Assembly (NCBI RefSeq): GCF_034044635.1
Contig: NZ_JAXCLX010000003.1
Span: 186,001-250,000, forward strand
DNA from: Dongia rigui
GTDB lineage: Bacteria; Pseudomonadota; Alphaproteobacteria; Dongiales; Dongiaceae
DNA length: 64,000 bases
Direction: 5' to 3'
Numbering within the stretch: position 1 is the first letter of the stretch; each line of letters starts with the position of its first letter. Under the pieces are notes generated by a model that searched no databases, was not told the origin of the DNA, and worked only from the letters and a program-made list of their open reading frames with translations. The position numbers and the translations under genes were made by a program. Positions 1,922-18,450 of the stretch are shown piece by piece.

Positions 1922-1925
1922 CGTC

Positions 1926-2873: not shown

Positions 2874-2875
2874 AT

Positions 2876-3733: not shown

Positions 3734-3738
3734 GAGCC

Positions 3739-4599: not shown

Positions 4600-4639
4600 A
4601 AGGCCTAGCATCTTTCGATCGGCACGCGCATTCTTGATT

Positions 4640-4724: not shown

Positions 4725-4732
4725 AGCAATAT

Positions 4733-5386
4733 TTAAAGCCCAGCCAATTCCTTGAGCAGCTCATCGGTCGAGCGCTGGCGGCAATAGCCCTTGATGGCGG
4801 CTTCAGAGAAGGTCTGGCGTTCCGGCGTATAGGTAGCGCAGGCATCGGGGACCAGCGTCACCAGATAGCCGAGATCGCCGCCGCCGCGCACCGTGTTCTC
4901 GACGCATTGGTCGGAGAGGACGCCGAACACGATCAGATATTCGAAACCCATATTGCGTAGGATGTAATCGAGATTGGTGGTACCCCACGGCCCCGACGCC
5001 GTCTTGCGCACGATGATGTCGTCATCGGCGGGCTTCACCTCGTCGATCACCTGCGCTTCCCAGCTGCCGCGCGGATTGTTGATGAACGACGCCTTGTGGT
5101 CGATGCCGCGGTCGCGGCCATCCTTGGTGAGGCTTTCGATCGTCACATAGATATTCTCGATCCCCAGTTTCCGCGTCGCGGCATGCAGGCGCTGCTGGTT
5201 GGGAATGGCGAGCGTGTCGAGCCGATCATAGAAGTAGCGATACTTGGCGCTCTCTGGTGTGTTGGCGTGGCGTTTCACGGCGGCACAATCGGCATTCTGC
5301 ATGTCGACGCTGATGAGCGCGGTCTTGCCCGGCACGATGGCGCGCTGGCGATAGGCTGGGCCGAGGATTTCTGGACGGTCGGTCAT
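4733..5386 (-). CDS. Isochorismatase-family cysteine hydrolase
   Basis: This 217-residue cytosolic hydrolase belongs to the isochorismatase/nicotinamidase superfamily. The catalytic triad is visible: D28 in SVDMQN, K128 in VRKTAS and C161 in LSDQCVEN. Cys-type members cleave amides such as nicotinamide, N-carbamoylsarcosine, ureidoacrylate or biuret. It overlaps the upstream amidohydrolase gene by four bases and is the last gene of the leftward transporter operon that starts at 10887. An amidase step in degrading the imported nitrogen compound is the natural reading, but the substrate cannot be told from the sequence. Confidence 0.85.
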   Translation of the reverse strand: MTDRPEILGPAYRQRAIVPGKTALISVDMQNADCAAVKRHANTPESAKYRYFYDRLDTLAIPNQQRLHAATRKLGIENIYVTIESLTKDGRDRGIDHKASFINNPRGSWEAQVIDEVKPADDDIIVRKTASGPWGTTNLDYILRNMGFEYLIVFGVLSDQCVENTVRGGGDLGYLVTLVPDACATYTPERQTFSEAAIKGYCRQRSTDELLKELAGL

Positions 5387-6192
5387 CTGTTATCCTTCGC
5401 ATCAGTTTGGGCCAGAGCGAGAATCGCCGGGCGCAAGCGGTGAAAAAGTTCCGTCAATCGGTCGCCCCAGCGGGCAATCCCCGCGGCATCGCCCAGTGTG
5501 TCCTGGCGGATCTCCACCAGCACATGCGGCAGGCCGCGCTGCTCGCCATGCACGGGGATGGCATAGTCGCTCTCATCCTCGACCGCATAAGGGAGATTGT
5601 CGCCGACGATGATACCCGGTTCCTGCAAGCCGTCGATGAGCAGCCCGGCCAAGCGCCGGTCGCGCTGATATCCGAAATCCACATGCCAGGGTCGCGTCTC
5701 GCCGGGATAATCGGGGGTGAAGCTGTGAATGGCGAAAAGCGCCGTCGGTACGCCGCGCGCTGCTCGTCGGTCGAGATGCGCCCCGATCGCTTGTTGATAG
5801 GGATGAAACAGCACGTCCTGGCGCTGGCGCTTTTCGGCCGTGGTGAGATGGCGATTGGCGGCGATCTCGATGCCGGCGCTGCTCGCGGGGATCGATCCGT
5901 CGCTGGTCAAAGGCCGGTTGCAATCGATCACCAGCCGCGAATAGCCGCTCAGGAACAGTGGCGCCTGAAAGGCGGCGGCAAGGCGCCGCGCGAGATCGGC
6001 GGCACCGATATCCCAGCCGATATGCGTCCGCCGCACCTCCTCGGCAAGGCCGAGATCCCCGAGGCGCCGCGGGATGCGGTGACTGGCGTGATCGCAGACG
6101 AAGACGAACAGGGCATCGCTGTCGCCATTGACGATCTCCACGGCCGGCGGTTCGTCGGCATTCAGCAAAGGTGGCAGGGCGGTGGTATTCAT
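5383..6192 (-). CDS. N-formylglutamate amidohydrolase family protein
   Basis: The 269-residue protein carries the N-formylglutamate amidohydrolase/DUF1826-like zinc hydrolase pattern (PF05013): FVCDHASHRIP near the N-terminus, HIGWDIGA, FAIHSFTPDY in the middle and VLVEIRQD near the C-terminus. The classical member, HutG, releases formate and glutamate. No other histidine-degradation gene is nearby. Given the glutamine-synthetase-like ligase across the regulator, it may instead hydrolyse another N-acyl- or gamma-glutamyl-type product; that is inferred. It is transcribed leftward between the LivH-like permease and the cysteine hydrolase. Confidence 0.85.
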   Translation of the reverse strand: MNTTALPPLLNADEPPAVEIVNGDSDALFVFVCDHASHRIPRRLGDLGLAEEVRRTHIGWDIGAADLARRLAAAFQAPLFLSGYSRLVIDCNRPLTSDGSIPASSAGIEIAANRHLTTAEKRQRQDVLFHPYQQAIGAHLDRRAARGVPTALFAIHSFTPDYPGETRPWHVDFGYQRDRRLAGLLIDGLQEPGIIVGDNLPYAVEDESDYAIPVHGEQRGLPHVLVEIRQDTLGDAAGIARWGDRLTELFHRLRPAILALAQTDAKDNR

Positions 6193-6210
6193 GATGTCTG
6201 GAAACTGGCT

Positions 6211-7098
6211 TTACGGCCGCACGCTATGCGCGGCACCAAACAGCCCTTGCGGGCGGTAGAGCAGTACCAAGACCACCAGGCTCAAGGCAATGGCGTCGCG
6301 GAAGGGCTGCACCGATTCCGGCAGCACGGCCTGGAGGCCGATCTCGATGGCCCCTAGGAAGAACCCGCCGATGACAGCGCCGGTCAGATTGCCGATGCCA
6401 CCCAGGATCGCAGCGATGAAGGCCTTAAGGACGGGCAGGAAACCCATCAAGGGATCGACCGAGCCACGCTGGGCGACCCACAGCAGGCCAGAAACGCCCG
6501 CGAGCAGGCCGGAAATGGCAAAGGCCGCCAGGATGACGCGGTTGGCGCGCAGACCCATGAGGCGCGTCGTCGGAAAATCGACGGCGGCCGCCCGGATGGC
6601 GATGCCGAGCATCGTCCGCTTCAGAAAGAGAGTGAGCAGCCCCACCATCGCGAAGGTCGCGAAGATGGAGAGACTCTGAATGACGCCGACATGGAACGGG
6701 CCGATGTTGAAAGCCCCCGTGAGCGATGCCGGGATCGGCACCGGACGCGGCCGGGTCGAGATCAGATTCTGGAACAGCATCTGCAGGATGCCGGAAACGG
6801 CAAAGCTGGTGATGAGCAAGGTTGTGCCATTGGCGCCGCGCAAGGGGCGAAAGGCGATGCGCTCCATCAACGCGGCGGTCGCCATGGCGACGATCAAAGC
6901 CAGCGGTATGATGAGGATCGGCGGCACATTGCCGATGATGGCAAAATAGACCGTGTAGCCGGCAATGGTCAGGATCTCGCCATGGGCGAAATTGATCATG
7001 CCGAGCACGCTGAAGACGACAGCAAGGCCCAGCGCCAGCAGCGCATAGGTGCCGCCGAGGCTCAGTGCATTGACGCATTGCTGAATGAGGATTTCCAT
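6211..7098 (-). CDS. Branched-chain amino acid-type ABC transporter permease (LivH-like)
   Basis: This 295-residue integral membrane protein is one of the two permeases of a HAAT-family importer. Its N-terminus, MEILIQQCVNALSLGGTYAL, is typical of LivH, and several hydrophobic segments follow. The family glycine-rich GGIGNLTGAVIGG motif, which contacts the ATPase, lies near the C-terminus. The ATG at 7098 is preferred because it gives the usual LivH start; a GTG at 7119, overlapping the livF stop, is the alternative. It works with the fused LivM-LivG protein, the LivF ATPase and the binding protein of the same operon. Confidence 0.88.
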   Translation of the reverse strand: MEILIQQCVNALSLGGTYALLALGLAVVFSVLGMINFAHGEILTIAGYTVYFAIIGNVPPILIIPLALIVAMATAALMERIAFRPLRGANGTTLLITSFAVSGILQMLFQNLISTRPRPVPIPASLTGAFNIGPFHVGVIQSLSIFATFAMVGLLTLFLKRTMLGIAIRAAAVDFPTTRLMGLRANRVILAAFAISGLLAGVSGLLWVAQRGSVDPLMGFLPVLKAFIAAILGGIGNLTGAVIGGFFLGAIEIGLQAVLPESVQPFRDAIALSLVVLVLLYRPQGLFGAAHSVRP

Positions 7099-7115
7099 TT
7101 CAGCCCATTCCCATC

Positions 7116-7829
7116 TCACCCATGCCCCATATAGGCTTTTTGTACGTCGGGCGAGGTCTTCAGCTCCGCTGCCGTCCCGGAGAGAACGACCGACCCGCCT
7201 CTCACCACATAACCGCGATCGGCGATGTCGAGGGCCTGGTGGACGTTCTGCTCGACCACCAGGATGGTGATGCCGAGCCCGCGCAGGCGCTTGATGAGGT
7301 CGAAGATGAGCTCGACGACGATGGGGGCAAGGCCCAGCGACGGCTCGTCGAGCAACAGGAGCTTGGGTCTCGACATCAGCGAGCGGGCGATGGCGAGCTG
7401 CTGTTGCTCGCCGCCCGAGAGCGTCCCGGCCAATTGCTTGCGGCGGGTGGCGAGGATGGGAAAGAGCTCCATCATCTGGTCCCAGAGGGCTGCCATATCG
7501 CCACCCTTCCCTTGCGTCGCCGCACCGATGCGCAGGTTCTCCTCGACCGTGAGCGGCGCGAAGATGCGCCGTCCTTCCGGCGTCAGCGTCAGGCCCCGGC
7601 GCACGATGCGCTCGGTGCTTTCGCCGGTGATGTCATGTCCATCGAAACGCACCCGCCCCTGCTGGACCGGCAGCAGGCCGACAATGGCCTGCAGGCTCGT
7701 CGACTTGCCGGCGCCATTGGCACCCAGCACGGTGACGATCTCGCCGCTCTCGACGGTCAGGCCGACATTGCGGACCGCTTTGATCGGTCCGTAACTGACG
7801 GCGAGACTCTCGACTTCCAACAGGGGCAT
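7116..7829 (-). CDS. ABC transporter ATP-binding protein (LivF-like)
   Basis: This 237-residue ATPase is of the LivF type. Walker A is GANGAGKST at 36-44, the signature is LSGGEQQQLAIARS, and Walker B is LLLLDEPSLGLAP, followed by the VVEQNVHQAL switch segment usual in LivF. It energises the importer together with the LivG half of the fused gene at 9010-10887. It lies 17 bases after the binding-protein gene and just before the LivH-like gene. Confidence 0.92.
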   Translation of the reverse strand: MPLLEVESLAVSYGPIKAVRNVGLTVESGEIVTVLGANGAGKSTSLQAIVGLLPVQQGRVRFDGHDITGESTERIVRRGLTLTPEGRRIFAPLTVEENLRIGAATQGKGGDMAALWDQMMELFPILATRRKQLAGTLSGGEQQQLAIARSLMSRPKLLLLDEPSLGLAPIVVELIFDLIKRLRGLGITILVVEQNVHQALDIADRGYVVRGGSVVLSGTAAELKTSPDVQKAYMGHG

Positions 7830-7846
7830 GGGCGTGTCGCTGCGTC

Positions 7847-9013
7847 TTAGAGCTTGGGCGCCGGGACGAGGGCCGGATCCGGCGCCTCCTGCAGCACCAG
7901 TTCGCGGTTGCCTTTGACGACCTTCACCAGCGCCACCTGGCGCAGCGGCACGCCGTCGGTGCCCTTATAGGTGATGGTCGATGTGGCACCCTGGACATTC
8001 TCCAACTCGCGCACCGCCGCCCAGACTTTTTCACGCTCGACCGAATCCGCCTTCAGCACGGCGGCTTCCAGCACTTTGATGAGGTCATAGCCGATGGCGA
8101 TATAGATGGTGTCGGGATCAGACCCCGTCGCCGCCTTGTACTTGTTGTTGAAGGCTTCGAGCGGGCTGCCCGGCGCCGCAAAGCCGGCGGTCGAGAACAC
8201 CACACCTTCGGCGACGTCACCCAGCGCAAAGGTCGTCGGCGAATCGATGCCGTCCGAACCGATCACCGGCGCCGTGATGCCGGCCGCGCGCAGCTGCTTG
8301 ATGAAGGCCGGGAAGTCCGGCTCATAGGCGCCGGTCATGATGACGTCGGCGGCCGGCGACAGCGATTTGATCTTGGTGACCTGGGCGCTGAAATCCTGCT
8401 GGCCCATGGAGTAATTGTCTTCCCCCACCACCTTGCCGCCCAGCTTCTCGAACACCGTCTTGAAGTAGTTCGGCAGCATCGTATAGGAGGTGTCCGGCGA
8501 CATCAGCAGATAGGCATTCTTGTAACCGCTATCGATCGCGTATTTCGCCGAGACGGTGGTCTGGACGTTGTCGCCGGGGAAATTGGTGAACATGTGATCG
8601 CCCACCGCCAGCGGCAGGCTGGGCGACGAGGCGCAGGTCGAGAAGGCGGCGACACCCGCCGCTTGCGCCATCTGGCCGGCACCGATGGAAGGGTCGGCAT
8701 CGCAGGGTGTCACAAGGACCGAAGCGCCGTCATCGATCAGCTCCTGTGCCGCGACGGAGGTCTGCGCCGGGTCGGAGCGCGAATCCTTCAGCCTCAGCTC
8801 GATCTTGTACTTGCCGCCGATGCCGCCGGCGGCATTGATCTCGTCGATCGCCAGCTGCATGCCCTTTTGCGCCGGCACGTCGGCATAGGCGAGACCGCCG
8901 GTGAGGCTGATCGCGGCACCGACGACCAGATCGTCGGCAAGCGCCGGCACGGTGGTGAGACCGACAAGACCGGCAAGGCCTGCCGCTAGGATATGGGTGG
9001 GAACTCGCTTCAT
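7847..9013 (-). CDS. ABC transporter substrate-binding protein (LIV-type)
   Basis: This 388-residue periplasmic receptor captures the transported compound. The N-terminus MKRVPTHILAAGLAGL, followed by VPALADD, is a Sec signal peptide with cleavage expected after ALA. The mature part is a type I periplasmic-binding fold with the family start VVGAAISLTGGLAYADVPAQ and the IELRLKDSRSDP segment. The ATG at 9013 follows GGGAGAGGAG and overlaps the stop of the upstream LivM-LivG fusion. LIV-type receptors bind amino acids, amides and urea-like compounds. The hydrolases downstream suggest an amide or amino-acid derivative rather than leucine. Confidence 0.9.
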   Translation of the reverse strand: MKRVPTHILAAGLAGLVGLTTVPALADDLVVGAAISLTGGLAYADVPAQKGMQLAIDEINAAGGIGGKYKIELRLKDSRSDPAQTSVAAQELIDDGASVLVTPCDADPSIGAGQMAQAAGVAAFSTCASSPSLPLAVGDHMFTNFPGDNVQTTVSAKYAIDSGYKNAYLLMSPDTSYTMLPNYFKTVFEKLGGKVVGEDNYSMGQQDFSAQVTKIKSLSPAADVIMTGAYEPDFPAFIKQLRAAGITAPVIGSDGIDSPTTFALGDVAEGVVFSTAGFAAPGSPLEAFNNKYKAATGSDPDTIYIAIGYDLIKVLEAAVLKADSVEREKVWAAVRELENVQGATSTITYKGTDGVPLRQVALVKVVKGNRELVLQEAPDPALVPAPKL

Positions 9014-10887
9014 GACACGCTCCTCTCCCATGCAGATGGGTGGGCGGAATGGGCGCGGCCGATATAGGCCTCGATGACGATGGGGTCGTTCTGCACGTCG
9101 GCCGGTGTGCCGGCGGCGATCATCTGCCCCTTGTTGAGGACGACGATGCGGTCGCACAGACGCATGACCAATTCCAGATGATGCTCGACCAGCAGCAGGC
9201 CGAGACCGTATTTGTCGCGAATCTGCCGGAGCAAGGTCATCAGCGCCTGGGTCTCGGCGGAATTCATGCCTGCCGCTGGCTCATCCAGCATCAGATAACG
9301 CGGCTTCAGGGCAAGTGCCCGGGCGATCTCGACGCGGCGCTGCTCGCCATAGGCCAGGGCCCCAGCGCGGCGTTCGGCGAGATGCGCGACACTCAGTTCC
9401 TCTAGCGCTGCCATCGCCTCGGCACGGATATCGCCACCTCTGCCGCTGGCCGAAACCGCGACCTCGACATTCTCAAGCACGGTCATTTCCTTGAACAGGC
9501 GGATGTTCTGGAAGGACCGCCCCAGACCCAGCCGCGCGATGCGGAAGGCCGGCTTTCCCGCGACCGCCACACCATCCAGCGTGACCGACCCGCTGCTCGG
9601 CGGCACCGCGCCGGAAATGGCATTGAGCATGGTGGTCTTGCCGGACCCGTTGGGGCCGATGAGCCCCACGATCTCACCCGGCCGCAATTCGAGCGACACG
9701 GTATCGAGCGCCTTGAGGCCGGAGAAATTCTTCGAGACGTTCTCGACCACCAGCGCGCCGTCGCGCTTTTCGCTGACGAAGCTGGTGATCTTCGCGGCCG
9801 CCCTGGTGAAGCGATGCTTGAACCAATCGTCGACTTCCGCGAGACCCAGCATGCCGCCGGGGCGCTTATACATGACGAACAGAATGCCAAGCCCCAGCGC
9901 CAATTGCGTGAGACCGAACACCTGCGGCAGGCCCAGCGAGGGCAGGATCGGGCTTTCTTCCAGGCGCCTGGCCAGTTCCATCACCACGGTCACGACGCCC
10001 GTGCCGACGACGGCCCCGGTCACTGACCCGATGCCGCCGATGATCAGCATGGCAAGGATGGCAAAGGTATCGACGAAGAAGAACTTCTTCGGGCTGAAGG
10101 CGCCGAGGAAATGGCCGATCATGGCGCCGGCCACACCCATCATCATCGCCGAGATGACCCAGGCGATGAGGCGACGCCGGGCGATGTTGACGCCCATAGC
10201 CTGCGCCGCCAGCTCGTCTTCGCGTGCCGCGCGGATTTCGAGACCCGCCGGCAGGTCGCGGAAGATGCGCGCCGCCAGAATGGTGAGCGCCACCCAGAAC
10301 AGCAGCGAGGGCAAGGTCACCAGCCGGTCGACACCGAAGAAGGTCTGGCTGCCGCGGGTGAAATCGGTGGCGCCATTGAGGATGCTGTGAACGATGACCA
10401 GGAAGGCCAGCGTCGCGATCGAGGCGGCCGATCCGGTAAGGCGCGAGATCGGCGTGCCGACAACCAGCGCAAAAATCCCGATGACGACAAGGGTGACGAG
10501 GCAGGCCTCATTGAGGCCCATATGCGCCTGCGCCAGGAAGTCCGGCAGGTTGGGCAGGGTCATCGCCTTTTTCTCAGGCGTCATGGTGAGAATGGCCGAG
10601 AGATAGGCGCCAACGCCCATGAAACCCAGATGACCGAAGCTCATGATGCCGGAATTGCCGGAATAGAGCCCGTTCGCCACCACCGCGATGAGATTGATGA
10701 GGAAGATGATGGCGATGCGCTGCTCGGCCGAGCCCAGCAGATTGCCGGCCACCAGCGCCAGCAGCGCCACCGGCACGATCAGCACCAGCGCGCCGGCAAA
10801 GGCCGGCCGCGTGCGATTGAGCGCTGCAAGATCAACGAGTGGTGTGATCGCCCGTCTCCCGATCCAAACCTGTGAAAGCCATCCCAT
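9010..10887 (-). CDS. Fused ABC permease and ATPase (LivM-LivG fusion)
   Basis: The 625-residue protein joins two usually separate subunits. Residues 1 to about 340 form a LivM-type permease with many membrane segments and the NGLYSGNSGIMSFGHLGFMG motif. From about 370 onward lies a LivG-type ATPase: Walker A GPNGSGKTT near residue 407, the LivG-specific RIARLGLGRSFQNIRLFKEM segment, LAYGEQRRVEIARAL as signature, and LMLDEPAAGMN as Walker B. The fusion fixes a 1:1 ratio of permease and ATPase. The ATG at 10887 opens the leftward operon divergent from the RpiR gene, so the palindrome at 10953 may control both directions. Confidence 0.9.
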   Translation of the reverse strand: MGWLSQVWIGRRAITPLVDLAALNRTRPAFAGALVLIVPVALLALVAGNLLGSAEQRIAIIFLINLIAVVANGLYSGNSGIMSFGHLGFMGVGAYLSAILTMTPEKKAMTLPNLPDFLAQAHMGLNEACLVTLVVIGIFALVVGTPISRLTGSAASIATLAFLVIVHSILNGATDFTRGSQTFFGVDRLVTLPSLLFWVALTILAARIFRDLPAGLEIRAAREDELAAQAMGVNIARRRLIAWVISAMMMGVAGAMIGHFLGAFSPKKFFFVDTFAILAMLIIGGIGSVTGAVVGTGVVTVVMELARRLEESPILPSLGLPQVFGLTQLALGLGILFVMYKRPGGMLGLAEVDDWFKHRFTRAAAKITSFVSEKRDGALVVENVSKNFSGLKALDTVSLELRPGEIVGLIGPNGSGKTTMLNAISGAVPPSSGSVTLDGVAVAGKPAFRIARLGLGRSFQNIRLFKEMTVLENVEVAVSASGRGGDIRAEAMAALEELSVAHLAERRAGALAYGEQRRVEIARALALKPRYLMLDEPAAGMNSAETQALMTLLRQIRDKYGLGLLLVEHHLELVMRLCDRIVVLNKGQMIAAGTPADVQNDPIVIEAYIGRAHSAHPSAWERSVS

Positions 10888-10952
10888 GCAGCCTGTGCCG
10901 GCCGCTTGGCCTGTATAGTAGGATTTTCATTCTTGCTGTCAATTGCCGTTTC

Positions 10953-10968
10953 TGTAGTATTCACTACG
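10953..10968. promoter_or_regulatory. RpiR-type operator candidate (16-bp palindrome)
   Basis: TGTAGT-ATTC-ACTACG is an inverted repeat whose arms match those of the HexR-type operator except for the last base, with a 4-base spacer instead of 3. It lies in the divergent region between the LivM-LivG fusion and the second RpiR gene. A half-site-like TGTATAGTAGG precedes it at about 10912. If the RpiR protein starts at 10990, the site lies just upstream of its ribosome binding site. It is the natural autoregulatory and divergent control site. Confidence 0.45.
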
Positions 10969-10989
10969 ACGCGTTCCGGGAGGCGGAAA

Positions 10990-11946
10990 CTGAAAAAACA
11001 ACCAGCACATCCCATCACGATCGAACAGCGCATCCGCGCCCTGCTGCCGCAATTGACGCCCGGCGAAAAGCGCGCGGCGCGTGCCCTGCTCGCCGCCTAT
11101 CCCATTGCAGCCCTTGGCACCATCGCCGAACTGACAGCGCTCTCGGACGCTTCCGCGCCGACGATCCTGCGCCTCACCGCCAAGCTCGGTTTCGACGGCT
11201 ACTCGCATTTCCAGCGCGCGGTGCGCGCGGAAGTGCAGGAGAAGATGCAATCCCCCTTGTCGCTGATGGACAGCGCGCCGCGTGTGCCGACGGCCAAAAG
11301 CGGCTTCTTCGGCGGCTTCATCAACGACATCACCGCCGCCCTGCAGCGCACCCAGCGGCTGCTCGACAACGACGTGCTGGAAGATGCCATCGCCACCCTG
11401 GCCGACACCAGCAAGCGCATCCACGCGCTGGGCGGCCGCTCCAGCCATGTGCTGGCAAAGCACCTCGTCTTCCACCTGCACCAGTTGCGCCCCAGCGTCC
11501 ACGAGATCGCGGCCGGTTCCGTGCCGGTCTACCACCAGGCGGCGGATATGGGCCGCTCCAGCGTCATCGTCGCCTTCGACTTCCGCCGCTATGAACGCCA
11601 GAGCATCGACTTCTGCCAGCAGGCAGCGCGTGAAGGCGCCCGCATCATCCTGGTGACCGACCCCTGGCTCTCCCCCATCGCCGAGGTGGCGCAATGGGTG
11701 CTGCCGGTCGAGGTCGACGTCCCCTCGCCCTTCGATTCATCGCTTGCCGCCATGGCGGTGGTCGAGGCGATGCTGGCCGGCACGCTTGCCCGGCTCGGCC
11801 CCACCGCCCGCGAGCGCATGCTGCGCCTGGAACAGGGGGCGGGCATTGATAAGGTGATCGGCAGCGCCGAGAATACGGCGGGCGAAAAAGCGCCCCAGAA
11901 GAATAATCGGCAGAAGAAACCACAACAGCGGAGACCGTCGCGGTGA
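10990..11946 (+). CDS. MurR/RpiR-family transcriptional regulator with uncertain start
   Basis: The regulator has an RpiR helix-turn-helix near its N-terminus (TIAELTALSDASAPTILRLT) and a weaker C-terminal SIS-like domain (IHALGGRSSHVLAKHL and SVIVAFDFRRYERQ), then a basic tail. No ATG lies ahead of the HTH. I place the start at the CTG at 10990, which follows GGGAGGCGG. TTG codons at 10906 and 10933 would add a hydrophobic stretch unlike RpiR proteins and would put the operator-like palindrome inside the gene. Its stop overlaps the GTG of the glutamine-synthetase-like gene, so it is co-transcribed with the catabolic enzymes and probably controls them and the divergent transporter. Confidence 0.8.
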   Translation: MKKQPAHPITIEQRIRALLPQLTPGEKRAARALLAAYPIAALGTIAELTALSDASAPTILRLTAKLGFDGYSHFQRAVRAEVQEKMQSPLSLMDSAPRVPTAKSGFFGGFINDITAALQRTQRLLDNDVLEDAIATLADTSKRIHALGGRSSHVLAKHLVFHLHQLRPSVHEIAAGSVPVYHQAADMGRSSVIVAFDFRRYERQSIDFCQQAAREGARIILVTDPWLSPIAEVAQWVLPVEVDVPSPFDSSLAAMAVVEAMLAGTLARLGPTARERMLRLEQGAGIDKVIGSAENTAGEKAPQKNNRQKKPQQRRPSR

Positions 11947-13262
11947 GCCATCCATCCGACCTTGCCATCTTCCTCACCAATGATCTGACCGGCATCAGCC
12001 GCGGCCGCGCCTTTCCGGCTGCCGATCTAAAAGCGCGGATGCGCGCCGGCGTGGGCTGGGTCCCGGCCAACCTCGCCCTCACCCCCTTCGGCGTCATCGG
12101 TGCCAATCCATTCGGGCCCTTGGGCGATCTCAGGCTGCAGCCGGACAAGGATGCCGTGGGCTTCGACATGACCGGCCTCGACGGCGAACCCGACCTCAAA
12201 GCCTTCCTCTGCGACATCGTCGAGACGGATGGCTCGCCTTGGGGCGGCTGTCCCCGCGGCTTTGCCAAGAAGGCGCTGGGTGAACTCGAGCGCGAATTCG
12301 GCCTCACCGTCAAAGGTTCGTTCGAGCACGAGTTCTTCCTGCTCGGCGATAACGAGATCGGCGACGCCGCCTTCACCTTGCAGGATTTCCGCAGCCAGCA
12401 GGAATTCCTGGGCACCGTCATCGCCGCCTTGACCCGCGCCGGTGTCGAGCCGGAAATGATCCTGCGCGAATACGGCCCCAAGCAATTCGAAGTGACGATG
12501 AAGCCATCGCGCGGCCTTGCCGTCGCAGACCGCGCCGTGATCCTGCGCGAGATCACCCGCGACATCGCCCGCCAGTTCGGCCAACGCGCCTGTTTCGCGC
12601 CGATCATCGACCCCACCTCCGTCGGCAGCGGCGTTCATGTGCATTTCAGCCTGGAGACCCTCGACGGCAAGCCGGTGACCCATGACGCGAACCAGCCCGG
12701 CGGCATCTCTGCGCAAGTCGCGAGCTTCATCGCCGGTGTGCTCAAACACATGCCGGCGCTCTGCGCCCTCACCGCGCCCAGTGTCATTTCCTATCTGCGC
12801 CTGACACCGCATCGCTGGAGTGCCGGCTATAACAGCTATGGCTTCCGCAACCGCGAGGCGAGTGTGCGCATCTGCCCGGTCGACGACACGCCCGGCAACG
12901 ATATCTCCCGCCAGGTCCATCTCGAATTCCGCGCCAGCGATGCTACCGCCAGCCCCTATATGGTGCTGGGCGCCCTGCTCCGCGCCGGGCTCGAGGGCCT
13001 GCGCGCCAAGATGTCGGCACCGCCGCTGGTCGAGGGCGATCCGGCCGATCTGTCGGACGCCGAACTCAAGGCGCTCAACGTGCGTCGCCTGCCGGATTCG
13101 CTTTCCGCAGCCTTGGCCGAGCTCGATGCCGACCAGGTGGTTTCCGGCTGGCTCCCGGCGCCATTGCGCCAGGGTTATCAGGCATTGAAGACCGCGGAAA
13201 TGGAACGCGTCGCCAAGCTCGAGCCCCAGGCGCAATGTGATCTTTATGCCGGCTATTACTAA
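11943..13262 (+). CDS. Glutamine synthetase-family ligase (gamma-glutamyl-amine synthetase-like)
   Basis: The 439-residue protein shows the glutamine synthetase fold: FEHEFFLLG for metal binding, GSGVHVHFSL for the ATP/ammonia site histidines, and NREASVRI, the NRxxxxR-type motif that binds glutamate phosphate. It lacks the adenylylation-loop context of assimilatory GlnA and lies in a catabolic operon. By analogy with PuuA and related ligases it may join glutamate to an amine in an ATP-dependent step. The GTG start at 11943 overlaps the regulator's stop, and the next gene starts inside its last codons, showing tight translational coupling. Confidence 0.85.
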   Translation: MSHPSDLAIFLTNDLTGISRGRAFPAADLKARMRAGVGWVPANLALTPFGVIGANPFGPLGDLRLQPDKDAVGFDMTGLDGEPDLKAFLCDIVETDGSPWGGCPRGFAKKALGELEREFGLTVKGSFEHEFFLLGDNEIGDAAFTLQDFRSQQEFLGTVIAALTRAGVEPEMILREYGPKQFEVTMKPSRGLAVADRAVILREITRDIARQFGQRACFAPIIDPTSVGSGVHVHFSLETLDGKPVTHDANQPGGISAQVASFIAGVLKHMPALCALTAPSVISYLRLTPHRWSAGYNSYGFRNREASVRICPVDDTPGNDISRQVHLEFRASDATASPYMVLGALLRAGLEGLRAKMSAPPLVEGDPADLSDAELKALNVRRLPDSLSAALAELDADQVVSGWLPAPLRQGYQALKTAEMERVAKLEPQAQCDLYAGYY

Positions 13263-14577
13263 TCAAGGCCTCATCGCCCGCGATGCCGCGTCGGTTGCCG
13301 GCATCGAGAAGCTGCGCTTCGGACCCTTCGCCATTCAATCGGGCGAGGGCAACACCCTCATCACCGAGGATGGCCGGCGCCTCATCGACTTCTCCGCCTC
13401 TTGGGGTGCGGCGAGCCTCGGTCATGGCCATCCGGCCATCGTCGAGGCGGTGACGCGCACGGTACGGCACATGCCCAGTGCCAGTATCCTCTCGACGACG
13501 CATGAACCCGGCGTGGCGCTGGCCGAGAAACTCCTCTCCCTCACGCCGGGGGGCGAGGATCGCCGCGTCTGGTTCGGCCATTCCGGATCGGATGCCAACG
13601 AGACCATCATTCGCGCTGTCGAAGCCGCGACCGGCAAGAAGCGCGTCATCGCCTTCATCGGCGCCTATCACGGCGGCACGGCGCTTTCGATGTCGGTCTC
13701 CGGCCACACTGCACAATCGCATGCGGCGCCGCGGCCGGGGTTGTTCCTGCTGCCATACCCCAACATCTACCGGCCGCATTTCCCCGGCCATGTTGGCGAG
13801 GTGGCGCTGGCGCAGCTCGATTATCTGCTGGCGACCGTCTGCCCGCCGCATGACACGGCGGCGATCATCTTCGAGGCCATCCAGGCCGATGGCGGCCTGC
13901 TCGTCCCGCCGCCCGGCTTTATCGCTGCCATCGCCGAACGCGCCCAGCGCCACGGCATTCTGCTGGTCTGCGACGAGGTGAAGGTGGGCCTCGCCCGCAC
14001 CGGCATGATGCATGCGTTTGACGCCGATGGCATCACACCGGACCTCATCAGCTTCGGCAAGGGCCTCGGCGGCGGTCTGCCGCTCTCGGCCGTCGTCGGA
14101 CCCGCCAGCATCCTTGACCGTACCACCGCCTTTGCGATGCAGACCCTCTGCGGCAATCCGGTCAGCTGTTCCGCGGGCCTCGCAGTTCTGGAAACGATCG
14201 AGCGCGAGAAGCTCGCCGGCAACACGGCCGCACGCGGCAAACAGATCATGGACGGCCTGAAGAAGCTGGCCGAGAAACATCCCCTCATCGGCGATATTCG
14301 CGGCCGCGGCCTCGCCATCGGTGTCGAGCTGGTGGCCAACCGCACGACCAAGGAACCGGCGGGGAAGGCCTGCCAGAAGATCGTCTACCGCTGCTTCGAG
14401 CTCGGCCTGCTCGTCTTCTATGTCGGCATGAAATCGAACGTGCTGGAACTGACCCCGCCTTTGACCCTGACGGAGGCCGAGGCGGCAGCGGGGCTTGCCA
14501 TTCTCGACCAGGCCATTGACGACGTCACCCAAGACCGCGTACCGGATGCGGCGATCGCCGCCTATGCCGGCTGGTAA
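13246..14577 (+). CDS. Class III PLP-dependent aminotransferase
   Basis: This 443-residue enzyme belongs to the aspartate-aminotransferase-family class III group (omega-amino acid, GABA and acetylornithine transaminases, glutamate-1-semialdehyde mutase). Motifs are FSASWGAASLGHGHP near the N-terminus, GHSGSDANE for cofactor phosphate, VCDEVKVGLARTG with the PLP Asp, and FGKGLGGGLP with the Schiff-base K272. The ATG at 13246 overlaps the end of the ligase gene; a GTG at 13237 is possible. It probably removes the amino group of the compound processed by this operon. A second, phospholyase-like aminotransferase domain is encoded in the next gene. Confidence 0.88.
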   Translation: MPAITNQGLIARDAASVAGIEKLRFGPFAIQSGEGNTLITEDGRRLIDFSASWGAASLGHGHPAIVEAVTRTVRHMPSASILSTTHEPGVALAEKLLSLTPGGEDRRVWFGHSGSDANETIIRAVEAATGKKRVIAFIGAYHGGTALSMSVSGHTAQSHAAPRPGLFLLPYPNIYRPHFPGHVGEVALAQLDYLLATVCPPHDTAAIIFEAIQADGGLLVPPPGFIAAIAERAQRHGILLVCDEVKVGLARTGMMHAFDADGITPDLISFGKGLGGGLPLSAVVGPASILDRTTAFAMQTLCGNPVSCSAGLAVLETIEREKLAGNTAARGKQIMDGLKKLAEKHPLIGDIRGRGLAIGVELVANRTTKEPAGKACQKIVYRCFELGLLVFYVGMKSNVLELTPPLTLTEAEAAAGLAILDQAIDDVTQDRVPDAAIAAYAGW

Positions 14578-14621
14578 AGAATAGCCGTTAAGCCAAACGC
14601 CAAAGCAAAACGAAAGTAGCC

Positions 14622-17600
14622 ATGTCCGTTCTCACCTCCCTGCCGCCCGCCTTCCCCGTCGATAAGGTCGAGGCAATCGTCGACAGTCTTTATGGCTTGA
14701 ACGGCAGCTTCGCGCCGCTCGACAGCGAGCGCGATCAGAACTTCCGCCTCACGGAAGCGAATGGCCAGAGCTGGGTGGTGAAGATCGCCAATCAGGCAGA
14801 GGATGTGCAGGCGCTCGATTTCCAGGCAGCACTCCTGCGTCACGTCGCCGAGCTTGATCCCGCCTTGCCCTTGCCGCACCTGAAACCCACCCTCAATGGC
14901 GAGATCCTCGGGCGCTGCACCAGCGCTGAAGGCACGCCGCATTTCGTGCGCGTCGTCGGCTGGCTGCCGGGCAAACCCTTCGCCAAAGGCCACAAATCCA
15001 CGGCGCTTTTTGCCAGCTTCGGCGAAACACTGGGTCGCCTCACCAAGGCGCTGCAAGGCTTCGGCCATCCGGGTGCCGCGCGCGATTTCGATTGGGACGT
15101 GGCCCAGGCCGGAAAATCCCGCGCGCGTCTTGCTTATATCGATGAACCCGAACAGCGCGACATCGTCGAATACTTCCTCGACCGGTTCGACGCGCATGTG
15201 GCGCCGCGCCTCAAGCGCTGCCGCGCCCAGGTCATCCACGGCGATGCCAATGACTATAACGTGCTGGTGGACAGCGCGACGGGTGAGCAGATCGCCGGCA
15301 TCATCGATTATGGCGATGCCATTCATTCGCCGCTCATCAACGAGCTCGCCGTCGCCGCCGCCTATGCCATCATGGACCGCGATGCGCCGATCGATGATGC
15401 CGGCACGATGGCAGCGGCCTTCCACCGCGCCAACCCGCTGCAAGCGGAAGAAATCGATCTGCTCTTCGATCTCATCGCCGCGCGGCTGGTCATCAGCGTC
15501 ACCATGTCGGCCTCACGCAAGGACCGCTCGAAGGACAACGCCTATCTCTCGATCAGCGAGGCGCCGGCCTGGAACCTGCTGAAGCGCCTGCGCGCCATGG
15601 ACCCGATCATCGCCACCGGCCTGCTGCGCCAGGCTTGCGGTTTCGAAGCCGTGGCCGGTGCTAAGGCTGTCATCGCCTGGCTGCAGGATAATCGCCGCAG
15701 CTTTGCCCCGGTCCTTGACCAGGCACCGGCGACGATGCGCAAGGGCCTGGTGCCCTTCGGCGACAAGACGCATCAGATCGCCATCGCCTCAGCGGCGCGC
15801 CGCCCGCTGGAAGCCGAGAAGCTCTGGGCCGAGATCATGGCCAAGGACGGCATAGATCTCGGCGTCGGACCGTGGGGCGAGGACCGCCCGGTCTATACGG
15901 CGGACGCCTTCGCCTCGACCTTGAGCACGGGCCAGCGTCGCTCGCTCCATCTCGGCCTCGATCTCTTCCTCGACGCCGGCGCCAATGTGCGTACGCCGCT
16001 GCCGGGCAAGGTCGTCGATATCTATGTCTCCGACCTGCCGCTCGATTACGGCCATGCCATCCTGCTGGAACACACTCCGGCGCCCGGCATCACCTTCTGC
16101 AGCCTGTGGGGGCATTTGAGTGCGGAGAGCGCCAAGGCGGTGAAAATCGGCGACGAGATGAAGGCCGGCGCTGTCGTGGGCCAGATGGGACCGAACACCG
16201 AGAATGGCGGCTGGCAGCCGCATGTGCATCTGCAGCTCATCGCCTATCGCCCAGAGAAGGCCGCCGATGTGATCGGTGCCGGCGAACCGGGCTATGCCAA
16301 GGTCTGGGCCGAGCTCTTCCCCAGCCCCGCAGCGTTTGCCGATCTCCCCGCTGAAACCTTCACCAAGGCCGGCCGCGCAGCGGACGATCTTCTCAAAGTC
16401 CGCAAGGAGAAGCTGGTTCGCAACCTCTCCATCTCCTACAAGACGCCGATGAAGATTGTGCGGGGTGAGGGCGTCCATCTCATCGACGATCGCGGCCGCG
16501 CCTATCTCGATTGCTACAACAACGTGGCGCAATTGGGCCATGCCAACCCTGAGATCGTCGAGGTGCTGGCGCGTCAGGCGGCGCTCCTCAACACCAATAC
16601 CCGCTACCTCCACGACAACATCATCGCCTATGCCGAAAAGCTCACCGCGACCTTGCCAAAGAACCTCACCGTCGCCGGTTTCGTGTGCAGCGGATCGGAG
16701 GCGAACGACCTCGCCTTGCGTCTCGCGCGCAACTATACGCAGGCGCAAGGGACGGTGGCGCTCGACTGGGCCTATCATGGCCATCTGTCGTCGCTGATCG
16801 AGATCAGCCCCTACAAGTATAAACGCAAGGGCGGCAAGGGCCGGCCGGCAACGACCGGCGAAGCGATGCTGCCCGACGCCTACCGGGCGCCGGCCGATTG
16901 GCCCAAGGCGGAGATCGCCGCGCGCTATGCCGCCAGTGTCACCACGGCCATCGACCAGTTGGCGCAAGCCGGCCATAAGCCCGCGGCCTTCATCGCCGAA
17001 TCCCTGCCAAGCTCCGCCGGGCAGATCGTGCTGCCGCAAGGCTATCTCAAGGCAGCCTACGCCGCGGCGCGCAAAGCCGGTGCGGTCATCATCGCCGACG
17101 AAGTGCAGATCGGCTTCGGCCGTGTGGGCTCGCATATGTGGGCCTTCGATTCCCATGATGCCGTGCCGGACATCGTCACCATGGGCAAGCCCATCGGCAA
17201 CGGCCACCCCATGGCGGCGATGGTGACGACGCGCGAGATCGCCGACGCCTTCTTCAACGGCATGGAATATTTCAACACCTTCGGCGGCAATCCCGTGTCA
17301 TGTGCCGTGGGCTTGAAGGTGCTGGAGATTCTGGAACGCGATCGCCTCCTCGCCAACGCGACTCGTCTGGGGCAAAGCCTGATCGCGCGCATGTCAAAGC
17401 TGATGGACCGCCACGACCGCATCGGCGACGTGCGCGGCCAGGGCCTCATGCTGGGCATCGAACTGGTCGAGGACCGCATGACCAAGGTGCCGGCCACCGA
17501 TTATGCCGGCCGCATCGTCGAAAAATGCCGCCAGCTCGGCGTGCTGCTCGGCACCGACGGCCCCCATGACAACGTCATCAAGATGCGCCCCGGCATGATC

Positions 17601-17666
17601 TTCACCGACACCAACGCCGATTTCCTGATGCAGGTGCTGGAAACTGCCTTCGCCGAGGTCGCGTGA
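14622..17666 (+). CDS. Trifunctional fusion: APH-type kinase, M23 peptidase domain, class III aminotransferase/phospholyase
   Basis: This 1014-residue protein has three domains. Residues about 20-300 are an aminoglycoside-phosphotransferase-type kinase, with the catalytic HGDANDYN at H206-D208 and the metal-binding IIDYGD near residue 229. Residues about 400-570 form an M23/LytM domain with intact zinc ligands H443 and D447 (HLGLD), H498 (WGHLS) and H534/H536 (PHVH). Residues about 590-1014 are a class III PLP enzyme with SGSEAND, ADEVQIGFGRVG and K856 in MGKPIGNG, close to the ethanolamine-phosphate and phosphohydroxylysine phospholyases. Kinase plus phospholyase suggests phosphorylation then phosphate elimination on a hydroxylated amine. 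The middle domain has no obvious role and no signal peptide precedes it. Confidence 0.9.
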   Translation: MSVLTSLPPAFPVDKVEAIVDSLYGLNGSFAPLDSERDQNFRLTEANGQSWVVKIANQAEDVQALDFQAALLRHVAELDPALPLPHLKPTLNGEILGRCTSAEGTPHFVRVVGWLPGKPFAKGHKSTALFASFGETLGRLTKALQGFGHPGAARDFDWDVAQAGKSRARLAYIDEPEQRDIVEYFLDRFDAHVAPRLKRCRAQVIHGDANDYNVLVDSATGEQIAGIIDYGDAIHSPLINELAVAAAYAIMDRDAPIDDAGTMAAAFHRANPLQAEEIDLLFDLIAARLVISVTMSASRKDRSKDNAYLSISEAPAWNLLKRLRAMDPIIATGLLRQACGFEAVAGAKAVIAWLQDNRRSFAPVLDQAPATMRKGLVPFGDKTHQIAIASAARRPLEAEKLWAEIMAKDGIDLGVGPWGEDRPVYTADAFASTLSTGQRRSLHLGLDLFLDAGANVRTPLPGKVVDIYVSDLPLDYGHAILLEHTPAPGITFCSLWGHLSAESAKAVKIGDEMKAGAVVGQMGPNTENGGWQPHVHLQLIAYRPEKAADVIGAGEPGYAKVWAELFPSPAAFADLPAETFTKAGRAADDLLKVRKEKLVRNLSISYKTPMKIVRGEGVHLIDDRGRAYLDCYNNVAQLGHANPEIVEVLARQAALLNTNTRYLHDNIIAYAEKLTATLPKNLTVAGFVCSGSEANDLALRLARNYTQAQGTVALDWAYHGHLSSLIEISPYKYKRKGGKGRPATTGEAMLPDAYRAPADWPKAEIAARYAASVTTAIDQLAQAGHKPAAFIAESLPSSAGQIVLPQGYLKAAYAAARKAGAVIIADEVQIGFGRVGSHMWAFDSHDAVPDIVTMGKPIGNGHPMAAMVTTREIADAFFNGMEYFNTFGGNPVSCAVGLKVLEILERDRLLANATRLGQSLIARMSKLMDRHDRIGDVRGQGLMLGIELVEDRMTKVPATDYAGRIVEKCRQLGVLLGTDGPHDNVIKMRPGMIFTDTNADFLMQVLETAFAEVA

Positions 17667-17683
17667 GGGGCGATGCCCCTCAC
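17663..17683. terminator. Hairpin spanning both stop codons of convergent genes
   Basis: GTGAGGGGC-GAT-GCCCCTCAC forms a perfect 9-bp stem with a 3-base loop. It contains the TGA of the trifunctional gene (17664-17666) on one strand and the TGA of the bicupin gene (17682-17680) on the other. There is no T-run, so it may act as an RNA-stabilising or convergent-stop structure rather than a classical intrinsic terminator. Confidence 0.55.
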
Positions 17684-18450
17684 CCCTTCGGGATCATGAT
17701 GCAATAGTACTTCTTCACATATTCGGTGTTGTGCCATTCGACATTGGCGCCCATCGGTACAAAGAAGGTGTCGCCGGCACGATAGGTCTCGTGCCAGCCG
17801 TCGGGCGTCGACAATGTCACTGAGCCTTCCAGCAGATGCATCAGCTCGTGGCGCGGAAACGGAATGGCCTTGCGGCGATAGGGCGTCGAATCCCAGACAC
17901 CCATGGTCCATTGGCCGGTCGCGTCCTCGATCCAGTTGCGCCCGGTCTGCGTCGGATTGGGGCTGAGCAGCAATTCGGGTGCCGGCGAGGGGCTGGGCTC
18001 ACGCGCCGCATTGATATCGATCTTCAGGATCTTCTGCGCACTGGCCTTGGCGGGATCCGCGCCCGAGGCGTCGTCGAAGATCACGTAGTACTTCTTCATA
18101 TAACCGGACTGCCGCCATTGGCAGACCGTGCCCTTGGGGATGGCGAAAGCCTCGCCGGCACCGATCGTGGTCTCGAGGCCGCCCGGTTCGACCATGGTGA
18201 CGCTGCCTTCGAGGACGATCATGAACTCGTTGACCGGATAGGGAGCCATCTTGGTCGTGAAGGCCGTACAATCCCAAAGACCGGCACTGAGGCCGATTTT
18301 CGGGTCATTGAAAAATTCGACGCCGCGCTGCACCGGATTGCCGGCAGTGAGTTCGTCCGCCGGAATGGCCGGCCACACGGCCAGACCTTCACCATTGTTA
18401 CCGTCGAGGTTGAACTTGATCACCGGATTGCTTGGCACGTCGATCCCCAC
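17680..18450 (-). CDS. Bicupin domain protein (cupin_3/DUF861-like)
   Basis: The 256-residue protein has two cupin repeats. The first (about 60-130) contains PVNEFMIVLEGSVTMVEPGG and AFAIPKGTVCQW; the second (about 175-250) contains HELMHLLEGSVTLSTPDG and FFVPMGANVEWH. Each resembles the DUF861/cupin_3 group that includes ureidoglycine- and ureidoglycolate-related enzymes. The GTG at 18450 is the start. It converges on the trifunctional gene and shares a terminal hairpin with it. It may process or bind a small nitrogen-containing metabolite of the same pathway, but its reaction is unknown. Confidence 0.7.
   Translation of the reverse strand: MGIDVPSNPVIKFNLDGNNGEGLAVWPAIPADELTAGNPVQRGVEFFNDPKIGLSAGLWDCTAFTTKMAPYPVNEFMIVLEGSVTMVEPGGLETTIGAGEAFAIPKGTVCQWRQSGYMKKYYVIFDDASGADPAKASAQKILKIDINAAREPSPSPAPELLLSPNPTQTGRNWIEDATGQWTMGVWDSTPYRRKAIPFPRHELMHLLEGSVTLSTPDGWHETYRAGDTFFVPMGANVEWHNTEYVKKYYCIMIPKG

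What the first reader, a model, noticed from the sequence alone, without database searches (positions are those of the whole stretch)
10990..18450. Uncharacterised kinase-phospholyase-ligase operon for a nitrogen compound
A dedicated RpiR regulator controls, on one side, a glutamine-synthetase-like ligase, a class III aminotransferase and a kinase-M23-aminotransferase fusion, and on the other a LIV importer, an N-formylglutamate-amidohydrolase-like enzyme and a cysteine hydrolase. Every gene overlaps or nearly touches the next. The sum reads as uptake of an amide or hydroxylated amine, ATP-dependent activation, phosphorylation and phosphate elimination or transamination, then amide hydrolysis. 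I know no textbook pathway with this set. The order of steps and the substrate are inferred.
Basis: partly seen in the sequence, partly recalled or inferred. Interest (0 to 1): 0.85.

Follow-up and report, generated by a model that had tools for sequence, protein, structure and literature searches.

The report
Operon for amino-acid amides or lactams
A bacterium carries a compact set of uptake, regulator and enzyme genes whose supposed aminotransferase is really a relative of a racemase used on amino-acid amides and lactams, which suggests what this recurrent, uncharacterised gene set breaks down.

Summary
In detail: an RpiR regulator divides two tight operons, LIV importer + FGase-like + isochorismatase-like hydrolase (leftward) and GS-like ligase + class III PLP enzyme + kinase-M23-PLP fusion (rightward). 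The reading changes. (1) The "class III aminotransferase" is closest to alpha-amino-epsilon-caprolactam (ACL)/amino-acid-amide racemases (493-506 bits, next family 274) and keeps their Asp and Lys. A Rhizobium freirei gene identical to crystallised 5M49, and a near-identical relative of amide racemase 6GIO, sit in clusters of this kind. (2) The GS is a PA5508-type gamma-glutamyl ligase by sequence. (3) The fusion's PLP domain is closest to ethanolamine-phosphate phospho-lyase; its M23 domain keeps a LytM-type active site. Co-occurrence is real: of the 80 nearest GS loci 73 have the cysteine hydrolase, 70 the FGase, 65 RpiR, 31 the racemase. The fusion is a rarer add-on. Best explanation: uptake and gamma-glutamylation-assisted hydrolysis of both enantiomers of an alpha-amino amide or lactam, with the fusion handling a hydroxylated variant. 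Substrate and order of steps are inferred. New variant of a known kind.

The parts
4733..5386 (-). Isochorismatase-superfamily cysteine hydrolase (CYSH)
   Evidence: PF00857 102 bits; D28, K128, C161 kept in 107 of 107 aligned sequences; model pLDDT 89.7, nearest folds an uncharacterised isochorismatase-like protein 3KL2, then biuret hydrolase, RutB and triuret hydrolase
5383..6192 (-). N-formylglutamate-amidohydrolase-like enzyme (FGA), predicted gamma-glutamyl amide hydrolase
   Evidence: PF05013 135 bits; PDB 2ODF 136 bits; H35, H57, D61, R86, D90, N92, R93, H156, E227 in 93 of 93
6211..7119 (-). LIV-type permease (LivH-like)
   Evidence: PF02653
7116..7829 (-). LIV-type ATPase (LivF-like)
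   Evidence: PF00005
7847..9013 (-). LIV-type periplasmic binding protein
   Evidence: PF13458 186 bits (scanned from the longer frame 7847-9157); solved relatives distant, best 93 bits
9010..10887 (-). LIV-type permease-ATPase fusion (LivM-LivG)
   Evidence: PF02653 + PF00005
10915..10942 (-). sigma70-like promoter of the leftward operon
   Evidence: TTGACA-16-TACTAT, 10 of 12; mean 0.2 such sites in shuffles of 10600-11300
10954..10967 (.). Candidate RpiR operator GTAGTATTCACTAC (inverted repeat)
   Evidence: only match in the window with up to 2 mismatches, mean 0.04 in 100 shuffles, 3 of which had one or more; identical in G037 and L105
10990..11946 (+). RpiR-family regulator (HTH + SIS); start uncertain, the frame has CTG at 10990
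   Evidence: PF01418, PF01380
11943..13262 (+). PA5508-type gamma-glutamyl ligase (GS-like)
   Evidence: PDB 4HPP 386 bits, next 154; active-site comparison
13237..14577 (+). ACL / amino-acid-amide racemase-type PLP enzyme (annotated class III aminotransferase)
   Evidence: PDB 5M46 506, 6GIO 502, 2ZUK 493 bits, next family 274; Asp, Lys and PLP Lys kept
14622..17666 (+). APH kinase - M23 - AGXT2L-type phospho-lyase fusion
   Evidence: NCBIfam NF004799 1417 bits, cut-off 1128; PLP domain best to 6TOR 445 bits; motifs in 26 of 26
17680..18450 (-). Bicupin, convergent neighbour, probably not part of the operon
   Evidence: PF05899, PF07883; PDB 3MYX 109 bits; kept beside the fusion in G263

Best explanation
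The two divergent operons form one catabolic unit for an alpha-amino amide or alpha-amino lactam (perhaps ester or thiolactone). The LIV-type importer brings it in. The racemase-type PLP enzyme interconverts D and L forms so that both are used. The PA5508-type ligase spends ATP to join the gamma-carboxyl of glutamate to the amine. The isochorismatase-like cysteine hydrolase opens the amide or lactam. The FGase-like enzyme removes the glutamyl group, giving back glutamate and the free amino acid. RpiR controls both operons from the shared promoter region. In this genus and a few other lineages the kinase-M23-phospholyase fusion extends the route to a hydroxylated form: kinase on the hydroxyl, then loss of phosphate and ammonia by the phospho-lyase domain, with the M23 domain as an extra hydrolase. 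Shown by sequence: families, catalytic residues, co-occurrence and gene layout. Inferred: substrate class, order of steps, role of RpiR, every reaction.
For: Racemase-branch assignment with Asp and Lys kept. The R. freirei PRF 81 gene L112:12153-13460 is identical over 436 residues to 5M49 and scores 831 bits with ACL racemase 2ZUK; it lies in RpiR-CYSH-GS-FGA-racemase with the LIV set divergent. The copy in L175 matches amino-acid-amide racemase 6GIO with about 16 differences in 439 (my count of the printed alignment) and lies in the same layout. ACL racemases act on alpha-amino lactams, amides, esters and exchange the alpha proton of a thiolactone (passages). Of 12 racemase-like places in 11 of 385 genomes, 6 lie within 10 kb of the ligase and 2 more near an FGase. 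The ligase keeps Glu/ATP/metal residues but has W292 where E. coli GlnA has its ammonium-site Glu (role recalled). FGase-family proteins are predicted elsewhere to hydrolyse gamma-glutamylglycine (passages). SttH, titled isochorismatase-like in a cited reference, opens a lactam (passages). Operator candidate between the arms.
Against: 49 of 80 GS loci show no racemase hit (some loci are cut by contig ends), so substrates may differ among clusters. In the class sample 4 of 30 GS loci (L056, L062, L064, L065) have neither hydrolase. 4 of 12 racemase-like genes have neither GS nor FGase nearby. 8 of 80 loci carry an FAD oxidase hit (PF01266 type), which fits a PuuB-like oxidation better than a purely hydrolytic route. 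PA5508 is reported to prefer bulky amines such as catecholamines (passage); amino-acid amides are not mentioned there. A ligation followed by its reversal is wasteful unless the middle step needs it, which nothing here shows. The window racemase is 55% identical to the R. freirei one. The binding protein's ligand is unknown. In G263 the cysteine hydrolase and fusion stand together without the rest.
Confidence: 0.5

Rival explanations
1. A gamma-glutamylation route for an ordinary monoamine or amino alcohol, as proposed for ethanolamine in Streptomyces and Chromohalobacter: ligase makes the gamma-glutamyl amide, the side chain is altered, the FGase-like enzyme cuts the product.
For: PA5508 is reported to take amines (passage); FGase-family gamma-glutamylglycine hydrolase predicted in that route; fusion's PLP domain closest to ethanolamine-phosphate phospho-lyase; FAD oxidase hit in 8 of 80 relatives.
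Against: No alcohol or aldehyde dehydrogenase among the operon genes scanned, which that route needs; it does not explain the racemase or the cysteine hydrolase; an Lrp/AsnC gene beside the fusion in 6 of 19 loci that I had labelled outside the cluster hints at an amino-acid rather than amine signal there.
Confidence: 0.2
2. One reading: the kinase and phospho-lyase are the main line and the operon degrades a hydroxylated amine or amino acid (hydroxylysine, phosphoethanolamine type).
For: Kinase, M23 and PLP motifs intact in 26 of 26 fusions; fusion lies with the ligase cluster in four separate places of its tree; CYSH and fusion stay together in G263.
Against: Fusion domains hit in only 5-6 of 80 GS loci; fusion in 13 of 385 genomes at 1e-170, in 11 of them away from the ligase hits; core present without it in most GS loci examined.
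Confidence: 0.15
3. Scavenging or detoxification of alpha-amino (thio)lactones, such as homoserine lactone left from quorum signals or homocysteine thiolactone, rather than nutrition on amides.
For: A characterised ACL racemase exchanges the alpha proton of homocysteine thiolactone (passage); relatives carry a PF04909 amidohydrolase beside the ligase, a superfamily in which lactonases are known (recalled).
Against: No lactonase family was identified among the window's operon genes; a four-gene importer argues for nutrition.
Confidence: 0.08
4. Ordinary chance neighbourhood: two or three unrelated transcription units placed side by side.
For: G263 lacks the block between CYSH and fusion; G165 and G340 carry the fusion on a contig other than the ligase hit.
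Against: Tight overlaps, recurrence in the 80 loci with different gene orders, and a Paracoccus plasmid with the same set less the racemase.
Confidence: 0.05

Closest known systems
Pseudomonas PA5508-type cluster (RpiR - cysteine hydrolase - GS-like - FGase-like)
   Same: Six Pseudomonas loci (L137, L150, L155, L162, L182, L183) have RpiR, CYSH, GS, FGA in a row; the window ligase's best PDB match is PA5508.
   Different: No LIV, racemase or fusion hit was printed for those loci; that PA5506, PA5507 and PA5509 are the other members in P. aeruginosa is recalled, not looked up.
ACL racemase / amino-acid-amide racemase (5M46-5M4D, 2ZUK, 6GIO)
   Same: Window enzyme 55% identical to the R. freirei enzyme, same Asp, Lys and PLP Lys; R. 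freirei and Brucella pecoris copies lie in this kind of cluster. The 5M4x entries are named only 'Aminotransferase class-III' in the PDB table; that they are the R. freirei ACL racemase is recalled and fits 831 bits to 2ZUK.
   Different: In the passages read it is a biocatalyst; here it is one part of an uptake and hydrolysis operon.
Puu pathway of E. coli (PuuA-PuuD)
   Same: GS-like ligase plus a later hydrolase that frees glutamate.
   Different: No PuuB-type oxidase or aldehyde dehydrogenase among the operon genes scanned, though 8 of 80 relatives have an FAD oxidase hit; ligase scores 266 against the PuuA cut-off of 650.
Ethanolamine gamma-glutamylation route (GlnA4, SCO1611-SCO1615)
   Same: GS-like ligase and FGase-family hydrolase (passages).
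   Different: No dehydrogenases among the operon genes scanned; racemase and cysteine hydrolase instead.
PRK06148 (NF004799) kinase-M23-aminotransferase fusions
   Same: 1417 bits, cut-off 1128.
   Different: Family is named only hypothetical protein; the PLP domain is of the phospho-lyase branch and here sits in the ligase cluster.
FluG / amidohydrolase + gamma-glutamyl ligase
   Same: A PF04909 amidohydrolase family whose scanned member is closest to 2QPX lies beside the ligase in some relatives; 2QPX and PA5508 are the relatives of FluG's two halves (passages).
   Different: The window has no such gene in the operon.

Membership tests
ACL / amino-acid-amide racemase | Closest solved relatives are these racemases, well above transaminases | tested here: met
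   493-506 bits; next 274 (alanine/serine racemase); a chain named hypothetical 4-aminobutyrate aminotransferase 243 and E. coli-type 4-aminobutyrate aminotransferase 232
ACL / amino-acid-amide racemase | Asp and Lys (altered in 5M4B and 5M4D; their catalytic role is recalled) and PLP Lys | tested here: met
   IQADGG, CDEVKVG, GKGLGGG in the window; signature in 40 of 40 relatives above 300 bits; E. coli PuuE has DEVQ
ACL / amino-acid-amide racemase | Racemisation of alpha-amino amide or lactam | not testable with these tools
   needs purified enzyme
PA5508-type gamma-glutamyl ligase | Metal, ATP and glutamate residues kept, ammonium-site acid lost | tested here: met
   alignment with E. coli GlnA and PuuA; residue roles recalled and in part from passages
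Glutamine synthetase (TIGR00653) | Score above the curated cut-off | tested here: not met
   193.5 bits, cut-off 429
Gamma-glutamylputrescine synthetase (NF045547) | Score above the curated cut-off | tested here: not met
   266 bits, cut-off 650
N-formylglutamate amidohydrolase (PF05013) | Pfam gathering score | tested here: met
   135 bits, cut-off 28.9; which amide it cuts is not testable here
Isochorismatase superfamily (PF00857) | Pfam score and Asp-Lys-Cys triad | tested here: met
   102 bits; D28, K128, C161 in 107 of 107
RutB or biuret hydrolase | NCBIfam equivalog cut-off | tested here: not met
   59 against 378 and 55 against 370 bits
AGXT2L-type phospho-lyase (fusion, PLP domain) | Closest solved relatives are phospho-lyases | tested here: met
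   6TOR 445 bits, 5G4I 329, next family 197
AGXT2L-type phospho-lyase (fusion, PLP domain) | Release of phosphate and ammonia from a vicinal phospho-amine | not testable with these tools
   needs purified enzyme
M23 peptidase domain (fusion) | LytM-type fold and zinc ligands | tested here: met
   model pLDDT 92.4, best folds EnpA, ShyA and lysostaphin; HxxxD, GH and HxH invariant in 21 of 21
Puu-type or ethanolamine gamma-glutamylation pathway | Oxidase or dehydrogenase plus aldehyde dehydrogenase in the set | tested here: not met
   none among the proteins scanned at 3718-18450; the rest of the genome was not searched for them

The most novel reading that the evidence does not exclude
A previously undescribed catabolic pathway in which glutamate is used as a disposable protecting group on alpha-amino amides or lactams: racemise, glutamylate, open the amide, deglutamylate. 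It would give the biocatalyst ACL racemase its natural setting. The kinase-M23-phospholyase fusion would be a three-site enzyme in which a cell-wall-type M23 zinc site acts on a small metabolite of the same route, such as a hydroxylysine lactam or amide.
Probability: 0.3. Interest if true: 0.8.

Novelty: new variant of a known kind. Interest (0 to 1): 0.6.

Why it matters
ACL racemase is used for deracemising amino-acid amides. The passages read here describe its biochemistry and biocatalytic use and name no physiological pathway beyond ACL racemisation with a lactam hydrolase. Finding a gene identical to one crystallised racemase, and a near-identical copy of another, inside one conserved uptake-regulator-ligase-hydrolase cluster makes that role directly testable. 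It also gives a substrate lead for PA5508-type ligases and for FluG, which is said to act on yet unknown compounds (passage). The fusion carries an apparently intact M23 site between a kinase and a PLP enzyme; I take it to be cytosolic from the domain make-up, no signal-peptide program was run.

Tried and rejected
Transaminase reading of 13237-14577: rejected, its nearest relatives and residues are of the racemase branch. PuuA or glutamine synthetase: curated cut-offs not met. RutB or biuret hydrolase as exact function: cut-offs not met. A ureidoglycine aminohydrolase for the bicupin: no such family among its hits. Ligand from the binding protein: solved relatives too distant. Literature: in searches no listed title or abstract start describes this operon (one search listed 20 of 56 papers; I opened passages of only some); one search found 0 papers holding both 'caprolactam racemase' and 'glutamine synthetase'. 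All cover the held open-access library only. Neighbours of the fusion outside the cluster: Lrp/AsnC in 6 of 19 loci (one of the six, L187, turned out to lie beside a cluster), otherwise mixed genes among the ten scanned. Metagenome and viral collections were not scanned.

Labels to correct: the fusion tree marks L187 as outside the cluster. Its genome is that of L124, where the fusion hit lies in the first 2 kb of the locus and the LIV permease hit at about 3 kb, so that label understates the linkage. L187, L189, L190, L193 and L195 were marked outside without a wider survey of their neighbourhoods.
Full report
What is there. The window lies in G000 (4.66 Mb, 10 contigs). Its nearest named relative is a Rhodospirillaceae MAG (ligase 75% identical), so it is taken as alphaproteobacterial. 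A divergent promoter region at about 10888-10990 separates two tight gene sets. Leftward: permease-ATPase fusion 9010-10887, binding protein 7847-9013, ATPase 7116-7829, permease 6211-7119, FGase-like 5383-6192, cysteine hydrolase 4733-5386. Rightward: RpiR to 11946, GS-like 11943-13262, class III PLP enzyme to 14577, kinase-M23-PLP fusion 14622-17666. The region holds a sigma70-like promoter for the left arm and a 14-base inverted repeat, GTAGTATTCACTAC, unchanged in G037 and in the MAG; the promoter's -35 stretch is also kept while bases between differ in part. The repeat is the only match in 64 kb with up to 2 mismatches (mean 0.04 in shuffles).

Is it more than chance? The GS protein was sought in 385 genomes of the class: 27 have a match at 1e-90 or better. 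In 30 loci around such genes (L039-L068) my count from the printout is cysteine hydrolase 22, FGase 19, binding protein 11, RpiR 9; four (L056, L062, L064, L065) have neither hydrolase. Of these 80: cysteine hydrolase 73, FGase 70, RpiR 65, LivF-like 52, LivMG-like 51, LivH-like 43, binding protein 40, racemase-like PLP enzyme 31, ArgE-like 10, FAD oxidase 8, kinase domain 6, M23 domain 6, fusion PLP domain 5, PF04909 amidohydrolase 4 (80-bit threshold except for M23). The 80 are those nearest the query, so these rates are upper estimates. As a control, ten 20-kb stretches around fusion genes elsewhere (L093-L102) have no hit of 80 bits or more to FGase, cysteine hydrolase, RpiR or binding protein.

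The stand-alone PLP enzyme. Pfam and NCBIfam place it among class III aminotransferases. Against solved structures the top seven distinct sequences are 5M46, 5M49, 5M4D and 5M4B (named 'Aminotransferase class-III'; recalled as the R. freirei ACL racemase and mutants), 6GIO (amino acid amide racemase), 2ZUK and 3DXW (ACL racemase), at 493-506 bits; then alanine/serine racemase at 274, isoleucine epimerase at 258, dialkylglycine decarboxylase at 246, a hypothetical 4-aminobutyrate aminotransferase at 243. The gene at L112:12153-13460 in R. freirei PRF 81 is identical over all 436 residues to 5M49 and scores 831 bits with 2ZUK; two sister entries differ from it at an Asp and a Lys that the window also has. 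That gene is the last of RpiR-CYSH-GS-FGA-racemase with the LIV set divergent. The copy in L175 (Brucella pecoris) matches 6GIO over its full length with about 16 differences in 439, again in such a cluster. The Asp, DEVK and PLP-lysine signature is in 40 of 40 relatives; E. coli PuuE has DEVQ. Starting from the racemase instead: 12 places in 11 of 385 genomes at 1e-95; 6 lie within 10 kb of a GS hit, 2 more near an FGase (7 bases away in L217, about 3.7 kb in L215), and 4 show neither (L212, L213, L214, L216, of which L212 and L214 are on short contigs). FGase relatives alone are common (188 of 385 genomes at 1e-35), so FGase by itself is weak evidence.

The ligase. Best solved relative is PA5508 (386 bits; next 154). 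Aligned with E. coli GlnA and PuuA, ten likely metal, ATP and glutamate residues are invariant (E128, E130, E176, E183, H232, R286, R304, R309, E328, R330); GlnA's GYEAPV Glu corresponds to W292, and the Asp of GlnA's FDGSS stretch is not kept (residue roles recalled, in line with passages). So it should join glutamate to an amine other than ammonia. The FluG paper (passages) says PA5508 prefers bulky amines.

The two hydrolases. The cysteine hydrolase keeps Asp28, Lys128 and Cys161 in 107 of 107 aligned sequences. Its model is nearest an uncharacterised isochorismatase-like protein (3KL2), then biuret hydrolase, RutB and triuret hydrolase, the best 50 at 16-25% identity. A review (passages) describes SttH opening the streptolidine lactam and cites it as isochorismatase-like. 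The FGase-like enzyme keeps H35, H57, D61, R86, D90, N92, R93, H156 and E227 in 93 of 93. FGase-family proteins are predicted to cut gamma-glutamylglycine in the ethanolamine route of Streptomyces and Chromohalobacter (passages).

The fusion. It passes NF004799. Its PLP domain is closest to ethanolamine-phosphate phospho-lyase 6TOR (445 bits), then phospholyase 5G4I (329), then 197. Kinase HxD and DxGD motifs, M23 ligands and PLP lysine are kept in 26 of 26 sequences. The M23 segment models as a LytM domain (pLDDT 92.4) with four histidines and one aspartate invariant in 21 of 21. In-cluster fusions are those of window, G037 and L105 (one clade), Paracoccus seriniphilus plasmid L072, L138, L125 and L145; they fall in four separate places of the tree. 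The fusion also lies beside the cluster in two Ensifer/Sinorhizobium loci (L119, L124), in one of them read in two pieces. Roseomonas mucosa has a separate phosphotransferase and PLP enzyme 7-9 kb from the ligase. In 13 of 385 genomes with the fusion at 1e-170, 11 have it away from the ligase hits. An Lrp/AsnC gene stands beside it in 6 of 19 loci marked outside the cluster. In G263 of the same genus the order is HexR-like, CYSH (92%), fusion (80%), bicupin, without the LIV-RpiR-GS-PLP-FGase block. The tree joins G263 with window and G037 (support 0.98) to the exclusion of L105, which has the block, so loss in G263 is the simpler history; the position of G165, which also lacks it there, is poorly supported (0.48). 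A separate RpiR-GS-FGase-LIV cluster lies on another contig of G263.

How it most likely works. Uptake of an alpha-amino amide or lactam; racemisation; gamma-glutamylation of the amine; hydrolysis of the amide or lactam by the cysteine hydrolase; removal of glutamate by the FGase-like enzyme; for hydroxylated products, phosphorylation and phospho-lyase elimination by the fusion. Families, residues, layout and co-occurrence are shown; substrate, order and every reaction are inferred. The reason for glutamylation, perhaps to hold the amine while the amide is opened, is a guess. FAD oxidases in 8 of 80 relatives mean that an oxidative, Puu-like variant cannot be excluded for some clusters.

Comparison and novelty. 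The logic (glutamylate, change, deglutamylate) is that of Puu and the ethanolamine route, but the dehydrogenases that define those are absent from the operon genes scanned. The core set recurs in Pseudomonas with PA5508-type ligases, so the core is not new as a gene set. New here, as far as the held library shows, are the racemase assignment in this setting, its link to crystallised enzymes, and the repeated link to the fusion: no held paper has both 'caprolactam racemase' and 'glutamine synthetase', and the listings of searches showed no description of the operon. Papers outside that library were not searched. Papers were seen as passages only or in search listings.

Noticed in passing
10954-10967: 14-base inverted repeat GTAGTATTCACTAC in the divergent promoter region, unchanged in window, G037 and L105; candidate RpiR operator.
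   Followed up: yes
10980-10995: RpiR seems to start at a CTG codon at 10990 behind a GGGAGG; G037 has CTG too, L105 does not keep it. Start codon uncertain.
   Followed up: partly
4645-4719: Two inverted copies of CCCCGCGAAAGCGGGGATCCA between the HexR-like gene and the cysteine hydrolase, none elsewhere in the window with up to 2 mismatches to CCCCGCNNNNGCGGGGATCCA; perhaps a terminator or REP-like element.
   Followed up: partly
L092 (G263:C43): Same-genus species with HexR-like, cysteine hydrolase and fusion side by side but without the LIV-RpiR-GS-PLP-FGase block.
   Followed up: partly
L119 and L124 (Ensifer, Sinorhizobium): The ligase cluster lies between a fusion gene and a second kinase/PLP gene, whereas in S. 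meliloti pSymB (L079) the two lie one gene apart without the cluster; in L119 the fusion is read in two pieces.
   Followed up: no
21756-26639: Predicted 1627-residue protein with 35 RTX calcium-binding repeat stretches.
   Followed up: no
354-4599: Separate upstream genes: cupin-type glucose-6-phosphate isomerase, 2-hydroxyacid dehydrogenase, HexR-like regulator (286 residues, 276 bits to a HexR model with cut-off 296).
   Followed up: no
L047, L051, L053, L059, L061, L068: A gene of one amidohydrolase family (L061 member PF04909, closest to 2QPX) next to or near the ligase, like the two halves of FluG as separate genes.
   Followed up: partly
L048 13988-16066: A hydantoinase/oxoprolinase-type gene near the ligase-FGase-cysteine hydrolase trio.
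   Followed up: no
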